Shown here: positions 98-7,410 of the stretch, piece after piece
Numbering within the stretch: the first letter of the stretch is position 1
Layout: each line of letters starts with the position of its first letter
Assembly (NCBI GenBank): GCA_029856235.1
Contig: JAHQWP010000055.1
Coordinates: 1 to 46,483 of the forward strand
From: Promethearchaeia archaeon
GTDB taxonomy: Archaea; Asgardarchaeota; Lokiarchaeia; Sigyniarchaeales; SOKP01
Direction of reading: 5' to 3'
Length of the DNA: 46,483 nucleotides
Position numbers and translations under genes: made by a program
The notes under the pieces: model-generated
Seen by the model: the letters and a program-made list of their open reading frames with translations, nothing else
What the model was told of the DNA's origin: nothing
Databases searched by the model: none

Positions 98-197
98 GCA
101 GATATAGCCAAGCGGTACGGCGCTGGTCTGGAACGGTAACTTTAACCAGATAACCAGTGTGTGAGAACACTCGAGGGTTCGAATCCCTCTGTCTGCG
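98..197 (+). tRNA. tRNA-Ser(GGA), intron-containing
   Basis: Cloverleaf read by eye. The acceptor stem is 98-104 with 190-196, with discriminator G197 and no encoded CCA. The D stem is 107-109/119-121. The anticodon stem is CTGGT (123-127) with ACCAG (153-157), and the T arm is GAGGG/CCCTC around TTCGAAT (173-189). The long variable arm (GTGT/ACAC hairpin, 159-170) marks a class II tRNA. G73 and the GGA anticodon (130-132) point to serine rather than leucine, which normally has A73 in archaea. The anticodon loop is interrupted by an 18-base intron (134-151). A T-rich tail follows directly. Confidence 0.93.
134..151 (+). other. tRNA-Ser intron (BHB type, position 37/38)
   Basis: This 18-base insertion lies between tRNA positions 37 (A133) and 38 (A152), the canonical archaeal site. 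The exon bases CTGG (128-131) pair with intron bases CCAG (146-149) as the 4-bp central helix. The three-base bulges are AA^C (132-134) and AT^A (150-152). The outer helix is the anticodon stem. The inner helix is weak. The archaeal splicing endonuclease EndA is expected to remove it. Confidence 0.88.
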
Positions 198-971: not shown

Positions 972-2426
972 TTAATCCATACCCAAGAAAGACCGCATAC
1001 CCGGATACTGCATCGCAGCCATTTCCTTAGCCAAGCTCTCGCTGTACTGGTGGACGATCCCTATAGCTATTAAAAGTCCCGTACCTGAAGTCAATGCACC
1101 TAAAGAATCGGCGAAGAAACTCATTACTGCAATTATAATACCGTTTAATATAACGAGCGTTGGAATGTAGCGCTTTAAGATTCGCTCAATAATTTTGTCC
1201 GAACTTCGAAACCCGGGAATTTGCATTCCTGAATCTATAATCTGTTGAGCTATATCTCGAGGGGCTAACCCTGAGACATCGACCCAGACGCGGCCGAGCA
1301 TCACGCAGAGGAATATGAAGAAAATCAAGTATATCACGGCTCTAATTGGATCTGCAATTAATTGATCAAGTCCTTGAGGAGGAGTAAGGTAATAAAGTAG
1401 ACCATAATCTGGAACTAAATAACTACCTGTTGCTCCGCCAGCATCCGCAGGGTTGAAATGGCCGATCAGATCGATCAACCAATTAGTGTCTGGATTTCTA
1501 AGGGCTGAATCAGGGCCGGCTAGTATCTGCCCGAAAAATAAGAAATTTGCGTACAAAGCGTTTACTAAAATAACTGGAATATTCGAAACGTATAATAGCT
1601 TCATAGGGTATTTCCCCTTAAAACCTCGATAGCCCTTGTACGCAAGAGGAATCTCGATCCTAGTGGACTCGAACCAAATCACAATTAGAAATATTCCCAA
1701 AGTGGTAAGACCTCCAAAAATGGAAGGTAGTCTGTCAGCTCTAAAAAATAAAGCAGCAGTATCAATATTAGGATTCGTTAAAGATTGAAAGAAAGCAATT
1801 ATAATTCCTCTTGCACCCTGACCAGGACCTGCGTCAATAAAACTAAACATGCTCCAAAAAACTTGTCCTGCTACACCAGTGGCGATAAAAAGAGATACCC
1901 CGCTTCCAATACCCCATCCTTTTTGCAAAATTTCGTCGAGTAAGATAATAATGATTCCCGAGACGAGTAATTGTAAAAACACAAAGGTTGCATTCGAGAT
2001 AGTTAAATCTCCAAAAGCGCCTCCTATCAAATAAGCTACAATGTTAAGGATTGTTAAAAACATTGCGAATACTTTTTGAGCTCCACTAAACATAGATCTA
2101 TCGTAAGGATCGCTCATATCGACTTTTATAATTTTAGAACCGAGAAGTAATTGCATTATCAATCCTGCAGTTACTATTGGACCTATTCCAAGTTCTGTTA
2201 GTGTTCCCTTTTGACTTGCTAATATAACTCTTAGCCAGTAGTAATAATCTGTCGTTTCAGTAGAAGTGACTCCGTAAAGTGGTATATTTGACATTATCAA
2301 ATAGATAATTAATACAACAATAGTCCATAATAGTTTCTCTTTGAATTGTACCTCTCTTTGCGGTTGTTTAATCTCAGGCATTATCCTTACGAACGGAGAA
2401 AAGGCCTTGAGGAATCTTCCAGTCAT
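972..2426 (-). CDS. secY: Preprotein translocase subunit SecY
   Basis: This 484-aa polytopic protein is the channel subunit of the Sec translocon (Sec61-alpha orthologue). The N-terminus (LKAFSPFVRIMPEIKQPQRE) followed by a helix and the IPLYGV segment is the archaeal SecY/Sec61 signature, and about ten hydrophobic segments follow. The conserved cytosolic loop with RIEIPLAYKGYRGFKGKYP (near residues 255-275) and the C-terminal GLLIAIGIVHQYSE helix are present. Length matches the family. It sits downstream of the stalk-protein genes after a 262-base AT-rich gap and upstream of the EMC3-like gene. This differs from the usual position after rpl15. The start at 2426 is ATG. Confidence 0.96.
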   Translation of the reverse strand: MTGRFLKAFSPFVRIMPEIKQPQREVQFKEKLLWTIVVLIIYLIMSNIPLYGVTSTETTDYYYWLRVILASQKGTLTELGIGPIVTAGLIMQLLLGSKIIKVDMSDPYDRSMFSGAQKVFAMFLTILNIVAYLIGGAFGDLTISNATFVFLQLLVSGIIIILLDEILQKGWGIGSGVSLFIATGVAGQVFWSMFSFIDAGPGQGARGIIIAFFQSLTNPNIDTAALFFRADRLPSIFGGLTTLGIFLIVIWFESTRIEIPLAYKGYRGFKGKYPMKLLYVSNIPVILVNALYANFLFFGQILAGPDSALRNPDTNWLIDLIGHFNPADAGGATGSYLVPDYGLLYYLTPPQGLDQLIADPIRAVIYLIFFIFLCVMLGRVWVDVSGLAPRDIAQQIIDSGMQIPGFRSSDKIIERILKRYIPTLVILNGIIIAVMSFFADSLGALTSGTGLLIAIGIVHQYSESLAKEMAAMQYPGMRSFLGMD

Positions 2427-2688
2427 GGTATTTCAGTTTAGTAGCTTTAACGAATATTATCTTTTTTTGTAAAAATAAAAAGTTCTTAATTTAGAAAGTT
2501 AACTTATAAAAAAATAGAATTTTAAAAAAACTTTTTGATTTATTTGGTATATGTTAGCAGATTTCTGATTTTTTAGGAAATCGAAATCGTTGAATATAAA
2601 AATAGTAGAAAAAATAAATTAAAAAAATTTTAAATAAATTTCATGTGCTCTGGTTCAATTTTGCATTATTCATATTGATTCTCAGAAA

Positions 2689-2982
2689 CTAAAAGAGACT
2701 CCCAATGCCTGTTGGCTCTTCTTCTTCTTCGGGTTCCTCTTCTTTCTTCTTCTTTTTTTCCTTTTTCTCAACAACGCCCCCAGCTGGAGCGGCAATAACA
2801 GGTGCTGAGCTAGCAGATTTGATAATATCCTCAATTTTTGTATCTTTTAATCCAGCAATTAATTTAACGATTTGATCTTTATCAACTGTTGCACCAGCAG
2901 CAGTTAATACTTTTTCTACATTCGTTTCGTTAATTTTTCCTCCAGCTTTATGTAACAATAAGGCAGCGTAAATACTTTCCAT
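2689..2982 (-). CDS. rpl12: Ribosomal protein P1 (archaeal L12, stalk)
   Basis: This 97-aa acidic stalk protein binds the C-terminal part of uL10 as dimers and recruits translational GTPases. The N-terminus MESIYAALLLHKAGG and the helical dimerization domain (1-60) match archaeal P1. An Ala/Pro hinge follows, then a charged Lys/Glu tract, and the tail ends GIGSLF, corresponding to the factor-binding GLGALFG motif of the family. A GAGGTT ribosome-binding site lies 8 bases before ATG. It is the fourth gene of the uL11-uL1-uL10-P1 series, 77 bases after uL10. The tract of alternating Lys and Glu blocks just before the tail is unusually Lys-rich. Confidence 0.95.
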   Translation of the reverse strand: MESIYAALLLHKAGGKINETNVEKVLTAAGATVDKDQIVKLIAGLKDTKIEDIIKSASSAPVIAAPAGGVVEKKEKKKKKEEEPEEEEEPTGIGSLF

Positions 2983-3059
2983 AATTTTTAACCTCTTTTT
3001 TGTTTTTTTATCATTAAATTGTATTTTTTATTGATATTTTTAAAAAAAATCTTAAATTT

Positions 3060-3953
3060 TTATCCAAATAATCCTCCAATCCCAACTTCCTCTTCGTCTT
3101 CTTCCTCTTCTTCGGGCTCTTTTTCTTCAACTTCAGTTTCTACTGGGGCAATAGCTTGAATTCCTTCCCCCAAAATAATCGCGTTTAATAAAGTGGCCTC
3201 AGATGTAGCCTTTCGAATATAATCCTCTGTCATATCTTCTGAATAGAATGGCATTTCAAATAGAATTGCAATTCCTTCTCTATATGCTTTAATAAAATCT
3301 TGTTTGAACTTATCCATATCCATATAAAGTAAATCTTCCGAGATAATTTCACCATCGCTCCATGCGTATTGAATTTTTATCAACGATTCAATCGGGGTTA
3401 TTCCTAACTTTTTTAGGACTGCAGCTTGTTTTACATCAACAAAATCTCCTGCTTTATGAGTTTGCGTGTCATCTCTAACCCAAATAGTATCGTTTTGAAT
3501 CCTCGTTGGAAGTCGAAGTGTCATGTTTAACTCACTTATAACTTGTCCGGTAGGTAAGCCAGTATCTCCTGCAGGAACCCAAATATCAACGGGGGTAACC
3601 TCGTCTGGTTTAGCAGGAACCATCCATTCACTTTGGAGAAAAATTTTCTTAAGCTCAAACACATCCATATTCGTGAAACATAACGCAGCTTGTCCTGGAA
3701 TTCCTTCTACTAACTCATCTAAATTTCTTTTTTTAGATTCCTCTTTATATTTTTCTACCGCTCTTTGTTGAAGACTTTTCTTTGACATCCGTATTATTGC
3801 TTTTCCTCTTAAAATTTTCCGTATCTCTTGTATTTGTCTATCGTTTAATTTTGCGACTTCTATTACTGCAATATTTTTGTAAGTTTTAAACAAATCAATT
3901 AAATGATCAACTTCATCCAATTTCCATTGGGGTATGTCGTGTTTTCCGATCAC
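3060..3953 (-). CDS. rpl10: Ribosomal protein uL10 (P0)
   Basis: This 297-aa protein forms the stalk base, binding 23S rRNA beside uL11 and carrying P1 dimers. The RNA-binding N-terminal domain (about 1-110), the archaeal/eukaryotic insertion domain (about 110-185, containing WVPAGDTGLPTGQVISE) and the P1-binding helices are followed by a Glu-rich linker and terminal VGIGGLFG. Start choice: the GTG at 3953 has a GAGGTG site 7 bases upstream that overlaps the end of uL1, suggesting translational coupling. Length is slightly below the roughly 335 aa of many archaeal P0 proteins, suggesting fewer P1-binding helices. Confidence 0.95.
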   Translation of the reverse strand: MIGKHDIPQWKLDEVDHLIDLFKTYKNIAVIEVAKLNDRQIQEIRKILRGKAIIRMSKKSLQQRAVEKYKEESKKRNLDELVEGIPGQAALCFTNMDVFELKKIFLQSEWMVPAKPDEVTPVDIWVPAGDTGLPTGQVISELNMTLRLPTRIQNDTIWVRDDTQTHKAGDFVDVKQAAVLKKLGITPIESLIKIQYAWSDGEIISEDLLYMDMDKFKQDFIKAYREGIAILFEMPFYSEDMTEDYIRKATSEATLLNAIILGEGIQAIAPVETEVEEKEPEEEEEDEEEVGIGGLFG

Positions 3954-3957
3954 TTTT

Positions 3958-4686
3958 TTACACCTCTATACTCTTTAAATATTGTTCATCAATCTTTATA
4001 GGATGCCCCATAGTCGTTTTTAAAAACATAGATTTAATATTATTATATTTGTGAGGCATCTGATCGGCAATATATTCCACAATAGCCTTCATGTTTTCAA
4101 ACACCTGTTCTTTTTCCATAGACTTTTTCCCAATTTTAACTTGAATTATTAGTTGCTTTTTTAACTGAATTCGGATTATTTTTAAGTATCGATCAATCGC
4201 TACTTGTAAATCATCTGGATTAGAAATAATACCATATCCACTTGGAAAAGGTTTCGGCATTTTACCTAGTGGTCCAAGAAATCTTGCTAAGTACCGGGCT
4301 ACATTTGGCATCATTTTGTCTTCAACTATGAAAAAATCGTATTTTTTTACGAATTTTTTCTTTACTTTTTTTTCTTCATTATTTAATTTGACTAATCCAT
4401 CGCTATCAATTGTCTCTAATCCTAGATTTTTAGCTTCCATAAGTATTTCGTCTGAAGCGATCACACAAACATTAGGTTTATCGCCAATTATTATATTATT
4501 TGGAAGTAATATTTCTTTGTCAATTCGTTGTTTAGGATCGTTCAGGTTAATATCCTTAAGATTTATTATGAAATCAATTGTTTCGTCGAATTTCCGTACT
4601 TTGTCTTTAAATCCATTTTTTTTAATCACCGAAAAATCGATTGCAGCGTTTAAAGATTTTCTTAACAGCTTATCATCTACTTTCAT
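3958..4686 (-). CDS. rpl1: Ribosomal protein uL1
   Basis: This 242-aa uL1 forms the mobile L1 stalk of the large subunit near the E site. Recognisable parts are the N-terminal region with RKFDETIDFIINLKDINLND, the central LGPLGKMPKPFPSGYGII segment, and the C-terminal half of domain I with VKIGKKSMEKEQVFENMKAI. It is 20-25 residues longer than typical archaeal L1. It starts 3 bases after the uL11 stop, with an AGGGGG site inside the end of uL11, so the two are likely translationally coupled. In methanogens L1 autoregulates this operon by binding a mimic of its rRNA site; I did not find such a mimic here. Confidence 0.95.
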   Translation of the reverse strand: MKVDDKLLRKSLNAAIDFSVIKKNGFKDKVRKFDETIDFIINLKDINLNDPKQRIDKEILLPNNIIIGDKPNVCVIASDEILMEAKNLGLETIDSDGLVKLNNEEKKVKKKFVKKYDFFIVEDKMMPNVARYLARFLGPLGKMPKPFPSGYGIISNPDDLQVAIDRYLKIIRIQLKKQLIIQVKIGKKSMEKEQVFENMKAIVEYIADQMPHKYNNIKSMFLKTTMGHPIKIDEQYLKSIEV

Positions 4687-4689
4687 TGA

Positions 4690-5216
4690 TTAAATATCCC
4701 CCTTTATTCTATCGTCATAATCCCCATTATCAATTTTCTTTTGAACCACGCGAGGGTCCCCACCTTCTACGGTTGCTCCAATTGATAAAGCAGTTCCTAA
4801 AACTGTTTTTACAGCGTTTTTAAATGTTTTCGCTAGAAAAATATCTTTTTTTGCATTAGCAACATTTACTATTTGTTCAAGTGTTAAATCTCCAGCCTTC
4901 TTTTCGGAACTATTAATGCTCCCTTTTTCGACCCCTAATTCTTTTAATAGCAGAGAAGCTGTGCTTGGTGTCTCTACGAAAATCTCAAATTGCTTAGTTT
5001 CCGGATCACATTCAATTCTCACTGGAACGGTCAGACCCTTGAAAAGCATGGTCTTTTCGTTAACGGCATCTACTACATCCTTAATGTATGCATAGGAAAT
5101 CGAACCGATTACCATCTTATGCCAGTAGGACCAACAGCAGGGCCGATAGGTGGTCCACCACTTGCAGCGCCACCCTTTACGAGAGCTTTTACTATGATCT
5201 TAGTTGTTTTACTCAT
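4690..5216 (-). CDS. rpl11: Ribosomal protein uL11, interrupted by a 29-base BHB intron
   Basis: uL11 binds the GTPase-associated centre of 23S rRNA. The gene is read as join(4690..5087, 5117..5216) on the complement, giving 165 aa. Exon 1 encodes MSKTTKIIVKALVKGG followed by the hallmark GPPIGPAVGPTGI. Exon 2 continues with (N)IKDVVDAVNEKT, then the rest of the N-terminal domain and the RNA-binding C-terminal domain (about 75-150). The unspliced frame would end after 35 residues (RW, then TAA). The Asn codon AAC is split after its first base (phase 1). Start: the ATG at 5216 has GAGG 4 bases upstream and a TATA box 25 bases away; an in-frame ATG at 5228 is too close to the TATA box. First gene of the stalk operon. 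A sequencing error alone does not explain the break, because restoring frame with one base leaves extra residues in a very conserved place. Confidence 0.9.
5088..5116 (-). other. Candidate bulge-helix-bulge intron in the uL11 mRNA
   Basis: This 29-base segment breaks the uL11 frame. In mRNA sense, exon 1 ends GGCATAA and the intron begins GATGG; the intron ends ATGCAT and exon 2 begins ACATTAAGG. The exon bases GCAT pair perfectly with intron bases ATGC (4-bp central helix). They are flanked by three-base bulges AA^G and AT^A, cut after the second base in each. The interior folds as GG-AATCG / CGATT-CC around a GTT loop, closed by an A-T pair. A short outer helix (TG with CA, then AT with TA across a mismatch) joins the exons. 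The tRNA-Ser intron in this window has the same geometry with bulges AA^C and AT^A. Confidence 0.85.
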
Positions 5217-5237
5217 TTTCCTCGTCATAAATTTTTA

Positions 5238-5245
5238 TTTTATAA
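5238..5245 (-). promoter_or_regulatory. TATA box for the uL11-L1-L10-P1 operon
   Basis: On the minus strand the sequence reads TTATAAAA, centred about 25 bases before the ATG at 5216. That is the archaeal TBP-box distance from a transcription start, so the transcript is predicted to begin at or just before the uL11 start codon (leaderless or nearly so). Confidence 0.6.
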
Positions 5246-5317
5246 TGCAAATTCAAAAATACATGTTAAAAGGCTAAGAACTATAAAAATAACGCAAAAT
5301 CTTTCGACTTTCTTCAT

Positions 5318-5340
5318 TTCAATATCTATTTTATATTGAA
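5318..5340. repeat. Perfect 8-bp inverted repeat in the divergent intergenic region
   Basis: TTCAATAT (5318-5325) and ATATTGAA (5333-5340) are perfect inverted copies around a 7-base loop. The site lies upstream of the uL11 TATA box, between divergent genes, so it could be an operator or the terminator or processing stem of an unseen short transcript. The rest of 5217-5558 (about 340 bases) contains the uL11 promoter, this repeat and the larger hairpin at 5360; I see no gene. Confidence 0.6.
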
Positions 5341-5359
5341 ACCGTATTATTATTACGTT

Positions 5360-5391
5360 CTAAGTCCTTCAAAAACGAATTTTGAACTTAG
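5360..5391. repeat. Second, longer inverted repeat (hairpin) upstream of the stalk operon
   Basis: CTAAG (5360-5364) pairs with CTTAG (5387-5391), and TTCAAAA (5368-5374) with TTTTGAA (5380-5386). There is a 3-base bulge TCC on one side and an ACGAA loop. Twelve base pairs in total in a non-coding stretch is notable. It could be a terminator-like stem or a protein-binding palindrome. Confidence 0.6.
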
Positions 5392-5558
5392 TAATTATTA
5401 ACAATGAAGTACACCTAAAAAATTTTATTAAAAAAATCCTTCACATGATCTGAATTTATTTATTTTATCGATGATAATATTAATTGAGAAAATACAAAGT
5501 ATTATTTCAGAGCTAAATCTATTCAAATTTTAGAACTCATTAAGGGTAAGGTTGCAAG

Positions 5559-6404
5559 ATGATAATTTGGATATTAAATAGTGATTCGGGAATTAAATTG
5601 CTCTATAAATCTTTTTTGAAAACAGATGCCGACGAGGATATCGTATCTGGTTTCTTAACGGCTTTCCATCATTTCTCTATGGAAGAATTTCACCAATCGC
5701 TGGAATCTATAGAAATGGGAGGATTAAAATGGATATATACTTTGGAACCGAAATTCAAATTACTATTTGTTGCTGCTGATGTAAGAAGCGTAAAGACTGA
5801 GATTTTAAGGGGACGCCTTAATGTAATTAAAGAAGCTTTTTTAAAAGAGTTTGAGCCCGTGTGGATAAAAAAGAAGCGTAGTTGGGATGGAAATATGAAT
5901 GTGTATTTACCATTTCTCAAAGTTATTGAAGATTACTATGGCCAATGGGAGGAAGTTGAATCGATAAGCCAAGTAGCGGACTTTTTTGACGTCTTAGGTG
6001 TATTTCAACAGATATTCATTAAGTTAAGAAATATATTAGAAAATAAAATGTATACGAAGTCCAAATCCTTAGTTTTAAATCAAATAGAAAAAACGTACAA
6101 CAAGTTAAAAAAGCAAGAGGAATATTTGCAACAACCTGAATTAGAAAATATAACCTTTAGTAAAGAATCGTGGTTCACCATTATTGATATAAATTTACTT
6201 AAATGTGAAAAGGAAGTAACCACTAAATATTTAAAGTCTCTTCTTTACGAAACGGTTCATATAATACACGATGTGAAAGGGAAAAATCTGTGTTTTAAAT
6301 ATTTTAGTGATGAAAAAGTGTATTCTTATATTTATAATAATATGGACTTGTTAAAGGATTTGAATTTAAATATGTTCTTTTTAGAGCTATTTTTGTTAAT
6401 ATAG
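5559..6404 (+). CDS. Longin-like domain protein with C-terminal helical extension
   Basis: A 281-aa soluble protein. Residues 1-115 have the pattern of a longin/roadblock-like fold: a first strand IWILNSDSGIKLLYKSF, a helix with DEDIVSGFLTAFHHFSMEEF, a strand pair IEMGGLKWIYTLEPKFKLLFVAADVR, and a long helix before FEPVW. The same order of elements appears in the protein at 18563. Longin domains occur in SNAREs, adaptor subunits and GTPase regulators of eukaryotic trafficking, and Asgard genomes carry many. The C-terminal part (about 120-281) is mostly charged helices that I do not recognise. It is divergent from the stalk operon with its own upstream region. A partner small GTPase is not present in the window. 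Confidence 0.6.
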   Translation: MIIWILNSDSGIKLLYKSFLKTDADEDIVSGFLTAFHHFSMEEFHQSLESIEMGGLKWIYTLEPKFKLLFVAADVRSVKTEILRGRLNVIKEAFLKEFEPVWIKKKRSWDGNMNVYLPFLKVIEDYYGQWEEVESISQVADFFDVLGVFQQIFIKLRNILENKMYTKSKSLVLNQIEKTYNKLKKQEEYLQQPELENITFSKESWFTIIDINLLKCEKEVTTKYLKSLLYETVHIIHDVKGKNLCFKYFSDEKVYSYIYNNMDLLKDLNLNMFFLELFLLI

Positions 6405-6732: not shown

Positions 6733-7410
6733 CTAAATCTGTTCTAAAATAACCTCATGTTTAATTGTGCCTATTTTTTCAATCGAGGCTTCTAAAACAT
6801 CACCAGGTTGTATCGGACTAATTCCACTTGGAGTACCTGTAGCTACTATATCTCCCCTCTTTAATGTTACAAACTTCGACAAATATTCTAGCATTTGAGG
6901 GATTTTAAATAACATGTGTTTAGTATTCGACAATTGTCTTGTCTGTCCGTTAACTTTTAATTGAATAGATAAGTTATGAGGATCTGAAATTTCACTACAC
7001 GGAACAATTCTTGGTCCTATCGGTCCAAAAGAATCGAAATTTTTGCTTCTATACCAGGGTAAATTTATATTTCTATCGCTTTTTTGCATAAATCTTGCAG
7101 TTAAATCCAGAAAAACTGTGTATCCTTGGATATAATCGAAAGCTTTCTCTGCTGAAACATTTTTACATGTTTGAAAAATAATAAACGCGAGTTCTACTTC
7201 ATGATCAACTCTATTATACTTCTCACTTTCGTACAGAATTTTTGGATAAATTATAGGTTCATTATCTGTTAAAAGCGTGTTCAGAGTCTTCACAAAGAAC
7301 ACGGGTTCTGTAGGAACGGGTGCATTAGTTTCTTTAATATGATCTATGTAGTTCCGTCCTAAACACAATATTTTCGTTGGATTAATTGTTGTTTTTCCAA
7401 TTTTTACCAT
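6733..7410 (-). CDS. Fumarylacetoacetate hydrolase (FAH) family protein, copy 2
   Basis: A 225-aa enzyme of the FAH C-terminal-domain family (FAHD1-like acylpyruvases, oxaloacetate decarboxylases, 2-hydroxyhepta-2,4-dienedioate isomerases). Family landmarks are ILCLGRNYIDHIKE at the N-terminus, the metal-binding motif DHEVELAFII (about 92-101), and GDIVATGTPSGISPIQPGD near the C-terminus. The metal ligands would be the acidic residues of EVE and the Asp of the FLDLTAR segment. It begins directly at the stop of the neighbouring paralogue (TAA then ATG) with GGTGA upstream, so the two are one operon from a tandem duplication. The substrate cannot be predicted. Confidence 0.82.
   Translation of the reverse strand: MVKIGKTTINPTKILCLGRNYIDHIKETNAPVPTEPVFFVKTLNTLLTDNEPIIYPKILYESEKYNRVDHEVELAFIIFQTCKNVSAEKAFDYIQGYTVFLDLTARFMQKSDRNINLPWYRSKNFDSFGPIGPRIVPCSEISDPHNLSIQLKVNGQTRQLSNTKHMLFKIPQMLEYLSKFVTLKRGDIVATGTPSGISPIQPGDVLEASIEKIGTIKHEVILEQI

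What the first reader, a model, noticed from the sequence alone, without database searches (positions are those of the whole stretch)
5088..5116. A 29-base BHB intron in a ribosomal protein mRNA (uL11)
Seen: the N-terminal uL11 coding segment (5216 to 5117) and the remainder (5087 down to 4690) are in different frames, separated by 29 bases. Deleting 5088-5116 gives GPTGI-N-IKDVVDAVNEKT, the expected uL11 continuation, with a phase-1 split Asn codon. The junctions fit an archaeal bulge-helix-bulge: 4-bp helix GCAT/ATGC, bulges AA^G and AT^A, inner hairpin of 8 bp. Known: EndA splices BHB introns in tRNA and rRNA and in very few mRNAs, cbf5 being the standard example. I know of no described uL11 case. 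Inference: splicing is required to make uL11, the first gene of the stalk operon, because the unspliced frame stops after 35 codons. It could thus act as a control point for ribosome stalk synthesis.
Basis: partly seen in the sequence, partly recalled or inferred. Interest (0 to 1): 0.93.

Follow-up and report, generated by a model that had tools for sequence, protein, structure and literature searches.

The report
Removable inserts in an archaeal ribosomal gene
In a family of Lokiarchaeota, archaea related to the ancestors of complex cells, the gene for ribosomal protein uL11 is often interrupted by one to three tiny introns at four fixed places; they look as if the tRNA-splicing enzyme cuts them out of the messenger RNA, which in the papers I could search is described inside the coding part of one other archaeal gene, but no RNA data were at hand to show the splicing itself.

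Summary
The window is from a Lokiarchaeota genome; its one uL11 gene is split by 29 nt (5088-5116, minus strand) that break the frame, and removing them restores the conserved GPTGINIKDVVDAVNEKT.

It is not a one-off. I found 36 insertions at four fixed positions within about 17 codons of uL11 in 27 genomes of one family; one gene carries three. Of the 33 tested in detail, all shift the frame or carry a stop, and 31 have the full 4-bp exon-intron helix between 3-nt bulges expected of substrates of the archaeal splicing endonuclease EndA. Helix bases covary. The genome has two EndA genes, one lacking the catalytic His, and an RtcB ligase. Translational bypassing explains 4 of 33 exactly.

So these are very probably EndA-spliced mRNA introns. 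Outside the family none of 151 same-phylum genomes with a match shows a break; a partial scan of other genes found no further case.

The "control point" idea is not supported: sister species differ in presence and site, and the intron-bearing 5' end of uL11 looks mosaic, as if exchanged in short tracts. Splicing itself was not observed.

The parts
5117..5216 (-). uL11 exon 1 (33 codons plus first base of the Asn codon)
   Evidence: sequence; PF03946 positions 1-25; tblastn to unbroken uL11 of G007, 70.6%
5088..5116 (-). 29-nt intron, site A, phase 1 in the Asn codon of GPTGIN
   Evidence: site A is interrupted in 15 of the 25 intron-bearing genomes, the window included
4690..5087 (-). uL11 exon 2 (rest of Asn codon to stop)
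   Evidence: 87.8% to G007
5119..5122 (-). central BHB helix, 5' strand GCAT (exon)
5116..5118 (-). 5' bulge AA^G, proposed cut between 5117 and 5116
   Evidence: cleavage inferred
5094..5115 (-). inner intron hairpin, 7 pairs with a T-T mismatch, central pentamer GGTTC
5090..5093 (-). central BHB helix, 3' strand ATGC (intron)
5087..5089 (-). 3' bulge AT^A, proposed cut between 5088 and 5087
   Evidence: cleavage inferred
5317..5391 (-). structured 5' leader of the uL11 operon, three conserved helices; present with or without introns (side finding)
3958..4686 (-). uL1, next gene of the operon, unbroken
   Evidence: PF00687 1.3e-45
3060..3953 (-). uL10 (P0), unbroken
   Evidence: PF00466, PF17777
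2689..2982 (-). P1 stalk protein, unbroken
   Evidence: PF00428 2.3e-13

Best explanation
The 29 bases are an archaeal BHB intron in the uL11 mRNA, one of a set of 28-37 nt introns that occupy four fixed sites near the 5' end of uL11 in one family of Lokiarchaeota. The exon's last bases pair with the intron's 3' end to form a 4-bp helix flanked by two 3-nt bulges, and the rest of the intron folds into a hairpin. A two-subunit EndA cuts in both bulges, RtcB joins the exons, and only then can full-length uL11 be made. Shown here: the frame break, the structure and its covariation, the conserved spliced protein, the genes of the enzymes. Inferred: the two-subunit assembly, cutting and joining in the cell. 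The introns turn over fast and appear to move between species within short recombined tracts of the uL11 5' end; a regulatory role is not evident.
For: Same gene broken at four sites in relatives: A aa 36/37, B aa 27, C aa 20, D aa 31. 33 introns in 25 genomes analysed in detail, 3 more in 2 further genomes. 33 of 33 shift the frame (26) or hold an in-frame stop (21) or both. After removal the genes give the conserved N-terminus (L077 readable from codon 20 only). 31 of 33 have all four central pairs in strict register; the other two, both site B, have 3 of 4; of the 3 found later, read from the letters printed, the site-C one has 4 and the two site-B ones have 3. Exon-intron covariation: site C AGGG/CCCT versus TGGG/CCCA, site B GCCT/GGGT versus GCCG/TGGT, site D GGCT/AGCC versus GGTT/AGTC. 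Inner helix at site A: 5 of 8 pairs with two-sided changes, 0 of 500 shuffles as many; the structure pairs 92.3% of cells, slid versions 25.8-48.4%. Two EndA genes, one with Ser where 1a79 has the His, one RtcB, tRNA genes with predicted introns.
Against: No RNA was seen: no spliced read, no peptide. A blind scan for BHB plus joinable frames in 553,126 bases of this genome and 235,016 of relatives found no excess over wrong-register controls, so the motif alone proves little and the case rests on homology. In one search two of the five measures do not stand out or stand out little (further pair types reached by 392 of 500 shuffles, cells paired by 19 of 500), and the +1 slide still has 4 pairs with two-sided changes; the central helix at site A is nearly constant and so says little about pairing there. 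Outer helices are strong at sites B and D only. 4 of 7 site-B introns lack one central pair. The shuffle probabilities of single introns are modest (0.007 to 0.185) and introns of one site share descent, so they cannot be multiplied.
Confidence: 0.93

Rival explanations
1. Translational bypassing: the ribosome hops over a short hairpin insert, as in phage T4 gene 60 and in yeast mitochondrial byp elements (recalled), without RNA cutting.
For: The inserts are short hairpins of 28-37 nt, and 4 of 33 have a take-off and landing codon pair that would give the exact conserved protein.
Against: 29 of 33 have no such solution, the window among them: its Asn codon exists only after joining A and AC. 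The BHB register fits 31 of 33 fully.
Confidence: 0.03
2. Assembly error, decayed gene, or a gene made as two polypeptides (the 141-aa frame starting at the ATG at 5115).
For: The genome is a fragmented metagenome bin with 8.26% contamination, and a 141-aa ORF does start inside the insert.
Against: Breaks at the same four sites in 27 genomes, among them a record titled chromosome (CP070831.1, L081); one uL11 in the genome; both exons keep the conserved protein. The ATG is not kept: the closest intron, G021, reads GAAGG where the window reads GATGG.
Confidence: 0.02
3. The intron is a conserved regulatory switch that ties uL11-operon output to splicing capacity.
For: The unspliced frame stops after 35 codons; the only introns found sit in the first gene of the stalk operon, and a scan of other genes found no further supported case.
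Against: 28 of 55 family genomes with a readable 5' end are unbroken; the window's sister G008, with 96% identical uL1+uL10, lacks the site-A intron and has one at site C; changes needed on the uL1+uL10 tree: A 13, B 4, C 9, D 2.
Confidence: 0.12

Closest known systems
cbf5 pre-mRNA intron of Crenarchaeota (Watanabe 2002, Yokobori 2009; of PMC2738675 I saw passages and the Background section)
   Same: Archaeal protein-coding mRNA, BHB-like structure, cut by EndA according to the paper, one gain and later losses
   Different: Other gene, other phylum; here four sites, up to three introns per gene, much faster turnover. cbf5 itself is not split between frames in the 56 of 58 Loki-related genomes with a match (one distant genome, G057, has an in-frame TGA)
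Archaeal tRNA BHB introns and their transposition in Thermoproteales (Fujishima 2010, as told in PMC4090602, passages seen)
   Same: BHB motif, similar introns at several sites, spread by an unknown route
   Different: tRNA, not mRNA
Abundant tRNA introns of Atabeyarchaeia and Freyarchaeia (PMC11291895, passages seen)
   Same: Asgard archaea with very many introns
   Different: tRNA genes only in the passages seen; other Asgard classes
Haloferax volcanii EndA substrates (PMC7714728, passages seen)
   Same: EndA acts on an mRNA
   Different: There it cuts in a 5' UTR; the paper calls cbf5 the only other additional BHB intron reported (2020)
Mitochondrial byp elements (recalled)
   Same: Short mobile hairpin inserts in coding sequence
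   Different: Skipped by the ribosome; the codon rule gives the exact protein in only 4 of 33 here

Membership tests
Archaeal BHB intron | 4-bp central helix between two 3-nt bulges on opposite strands | tested here: met
   31 of 33 full, 2 of 33 with 3 of 4 pairs; window full
Archaeal BHB intron | cuts in the bulges restore the mature product | tested here: met
   on paper: for 31 of 33 the register with four pairs gives the conserved protein exactly
Archaeal BHB intron | outer helix (canonical hBHBh' form) | tested here: inconclusive
   flanks such as GGACC/GGTCC at sites B and D, weak at A and C (letters, by eye); relaxed forms are cut by two-subunit EndA (PMC6379350, passages)
Archaeal BHB intron | splicing endonuclease able to cut relaxed or non-tRNA BHB | tested here: inconclusive
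   two EndA genes; one closest to A. pernix chain 3p1z, the other lacks the His of 1a79; a two-subunit enzyme and its activity are inferred
Archaeal BHB intron | ligase RtcB | tested here: met
   one gene, 1.6e-168
Archaeal BHB intron | removal from RNA | not testable with these tools
   no RNA data at hand
Translational bypassing element | matched take-off and landing codons giving the right protein | tested here: not met
   4 of 33; not in the window
Group I or II intron | catalytic core of hundreds of bases (recalled) | tested here: not met
   28-37 nt; two Rfam matches in 2400-5600, both below gathering score and neither an intron
cbf5-type mRNA intron | lies in cbf5 | tested here: not met
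   in uL11; cbf5 not split

The most novel reading that the evidence does not exclude
The uL11 introns are a mobile family of EndA-dependent mini-introns, marked by a shared hairpin with a purine-N-N-T-C pentaloop at four unrelated sites, that colonise one ribosomal protein gene again and again, by reverse splicing or BHB-guided transposition followed by short-tract exchange between species: a minimal selfish element living on the tRNA-splicing machinery of archaea close to the ancestry of eukaryotes.
Probability: 0.35. Interest if true: 0.93.

Novelty: new variant of a known kind. Interest (0 to 1): 0.88.

Why it matters
In the papers I could search, BHB introns inside coding sequences of archaea come down to the cbf5 case. 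Here a ribosomal protein gene of Asgard archaea seems to depend on tRNA-type splicing of its mRNA, with four sites, up to three introns per gene and differences between close species. That gives a natural series to test how such introns arise, move and are lost, in the archaeal group thought nearest to intron-rich eukaryotes. It also means that gene callers will truncate uL11, a marker often used in archaeal phylogenies (recalled), in these genomes.

Tried and rejected
A blind scan for BHB plus joinable reading frames had no power: the right register gave 6809 (own) and 4179 (relatives) candidates, wrong registers 6811-6893 and 4052-4199. Dropped.

A homology scan of 122 loci (1,414,078 bases, 1426 ORFs) for frame-breaking insertions of 14-150 nt gave 31 places: 18 in uL11; 12 from one ORF of G019 (L246) that fuses two neighbouring genes (six of the twelve read: ordinary gene ends); 1 weak place (L271, 113 nt, one supporting query, not followed). 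Its reach is limited: by my count it found 18 of the 30 uL11 introns in its loci, missing in-frame ones and ones near a gene start. uS12 (53 of 58 genomes with a match, G018 partial), uL2 (54 of 58, 53 over the cut-off, G001 partial) and cbf5 (56 of 58, mostly two stretches of one frame) show no split between frames.

A tRNA-derived origin was considered because the window's intron holds GGTTCGATTTCC, like a T-arm; apart from G021 the introns of the site do not keep it, so probably chance.

Rfam gave only sub-threshold matches. The spliced-alignment script stopped on its first run and was mended; it failed on L022, L026, L018, L027 and L011 and gave false N-terminal gaps at aa 6-12 in L030, L023, L019, L016, L015, L005 and L004; these rows have unbroken matches and count as intronless. 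The first boundary count mishandled genes with several introns and was replaced. The aligner misplaced site C, so that alignment was not used; L077 is misaligned in A1 but was kept. Fourteen of 15 site-A introns were aligned (L037, same core as L036, left out); 35 of the 42 leaders were aligned.

Full report
WHAT IS THERE. On the minus strand lie uL11, uL1, uL10, P1, SecY and an EMC3-like gene. uL11 starts at 5216 and its frame stops after 35 codons; 29 bases (5116-5088) separate it from the rest, which runs to 4690. The search shows no other uL11 in the genome.

RELATIVES. A search of 58 genomes with the uL11 N-domain showed split or shortened matches in many relatives. Reading those loci and 80 loci of named genomes, and aligning each of 64 distinct genes to unbroken uL11 with introns allowed anywhere, gave 33 insertions of 28-37 nt in 25 genomes, each at one of four sites: A, in the Asn codon of GPTGIN (15); B, in the Ile codon of GPPI (5); C, in the codon before ASGGPP (11); D, in the Val codon of GPAV (2). 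Two more genomes (L280, L283) add two B and one C, in all 36 in 27 genomes. L091 (G150) has A, B and C together. Each of the 33 shifts the frame or brings a stop.

HOW FAR IT REACHES. In the phylum search (227 genomes, 209 with a match) the window's family has 58 genomes with a match: the 27 above; 28 with an N-domain match at E 5e-18 or better (26 seen as one unbroken match in the lists; G139 and G148 by E-value only, their rows were cut); one cut by the contig start (G020, L041); and two whose weak match is not uL11 (G001, G005; no hit in L045 and L046). Seven more family genomes had no match. Of 151 genomes outside the family with a match, none shows a break by its best match (the match rows were partly cut from the output): the three weakest are a contig end (G128) and two unbroken frames (G164, G165). 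Loci of other archaea (L100-L138) show only small in-frame gaps. That the phylum is Asgard is my inference from the Lokiarchaeota titles.

STRUCTURE. With boundaries limited to those that keep the protein exactly, 31 of 33 introns have a full 4-bp helix between the exon's end and the intron's end with 3-nt bulges on opposite strands. Two site-B introns have 3 of 4; so do, by eye, the two B introns. Changes compensate between exon and intron at sites B, C and D. At site A the inner helix has 5 of 8 pairs changed on both sides (0 of 500 shuffles reach that), and the structure pairs 92.3% of cells against 25.8-48.4% when slid; but further pair types are no more than in shuffles (392 of 500 reach them) and the +1 slide has 4 such pairs. 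The best 5-nt loop of each intron, chosen by stem length, ends in TC in 24 of 33 and starts with a purine in 31 of 33; letter frequencies alone would give TC in about 6%, though introns of one site share descent. The loop type recurs at all four sites.

MACHINERY. Two EndA-family genes: L139 aligns best to the A. pernix chains 3p1z and 3ajv, with the Tyr, His and Lys of the active site (recalled) kept; L140 aligns to 1a79 with Ser where the His lies. PMC6379350 (passages) lists A. pernix EndA as a two-subunit enzyme of broad specificity. RtcB is present. tRNA genes with predicted introns are present.

RIVALS. Bypassing needs matching take-off and landing codons; 4 of 33 introns offer an exact solution, the window's none. 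Assembly error and gene decay do not fit breaks at fixed sites in 27 genomes with intact exons. The two-polypeptide reading rests on an ATG that G021 lacks.

TURNOVER. On a quick tree of uL1 and uL10 (62 rows, SH-aLRT support only) the fewest changes are A 13, B 4, C 9, D 2. The window (A) and G008 (C) are sisters with 96% identical uL1+uL10; G015 (A, C) and G023 (B) are sisters too. Exon DNA, compared without gaps in 15 chosen pairs of 13 genomes, suggests why: window and G008 share 93.8% in uL1 but 71.9% and 68.5% in codons 1-19 and 20-37, while G008 and G016 share 94.7% in codons 1-19 but 80.2% in uL1; G009 and G014 share 96.6% in uL1 but 56.1% and 74.1% in those codons; G004 and G016 share 96.3-98.6% in codons 20-60 but 77.0% in uL1. 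Window and G021, both with site A, show no such contrast (92.3-96.5% throughout). The 5' end seems to be exchanged in short tracts that carry introns along. Chimeric bins could mimic this in single cases, and the pairs were not picked at random. Such turnover speaks against an indispensable switch.

SPECIFICITY. Among 122 loci (1.41 Mb) the scan compared 94 ortholog clusters, uL11 included, 37 of them seen in 8 or more loci (13,605 query-locus matches outside uL11). Supported insertions were found in uL11 only, but the scan itself caught 18 of the 30 uL11 introns present, so a missed case elsewhere is possible. Searches with uS12, uL2 and cbf5 show no split between frames. Why uL11 is hit is open; most of the genome was not compared.

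LITERATURE. None of the listings, several of them capped, shows a uL11 BHB intron or an Asgard mRNA BHB intron. PMC7714728 (passages) calls cbf5 the one additional BHB intron reported by 2020; PMC2738675 (passages and Background) describes its gain and loss; [quoted passage not shown] PMC11291895 (passages) of tRNA introns in other Asgard archaea; passages of PMC12397907 and PMC13149111 add no mRNA case. Most subscription papers and bioRxiv preprints were not searchable.

VERDICT. EndA-spliced mRNA introns, a new variant of a known kind; splicing itself remains to be shown.

Noticed in passing
window 5317-5391 (-); family loci: Structured leader of the uL11 operon: helices CTAAGT/ACTTAG, CGYN/NRCG and TTTCRATAT/ATATYGAAA in 35 aligned species, 96.4% of cells paired, 27 cells with two-sided changes (0 of 500 shuffles reach that; the number of such pairs, 4, is reached by 263 of 500); no Rfam family. 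A possible autoregulatory site, with or without introns.
   Followed up: partly
window 98-197 (+): tRNA-Ser (GGA) with a predicted intron, missed by the default tRNA scan and found with the Rfam model; the same sequence occurs again on contig C217 (L157).
   Followed up: no
uL11 5' ends of G000, G008, G016, G004, G009, G014 (loci): Mosaic ancestry of the first 40-60 codons against uL1, suggesting short-tract exchange between species.
   Followed up: partly
L246:2385-4475 (-) (G019): Two neighbouring genes that are separate in the relatives read as one 697-codon frame in G019.
   Followed up: partly
introns of all four sites: Inner hairpins share a purine-N-N-T-C pentaloop; meaning unknown (common origin or a binding site).
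   Followed up: partly
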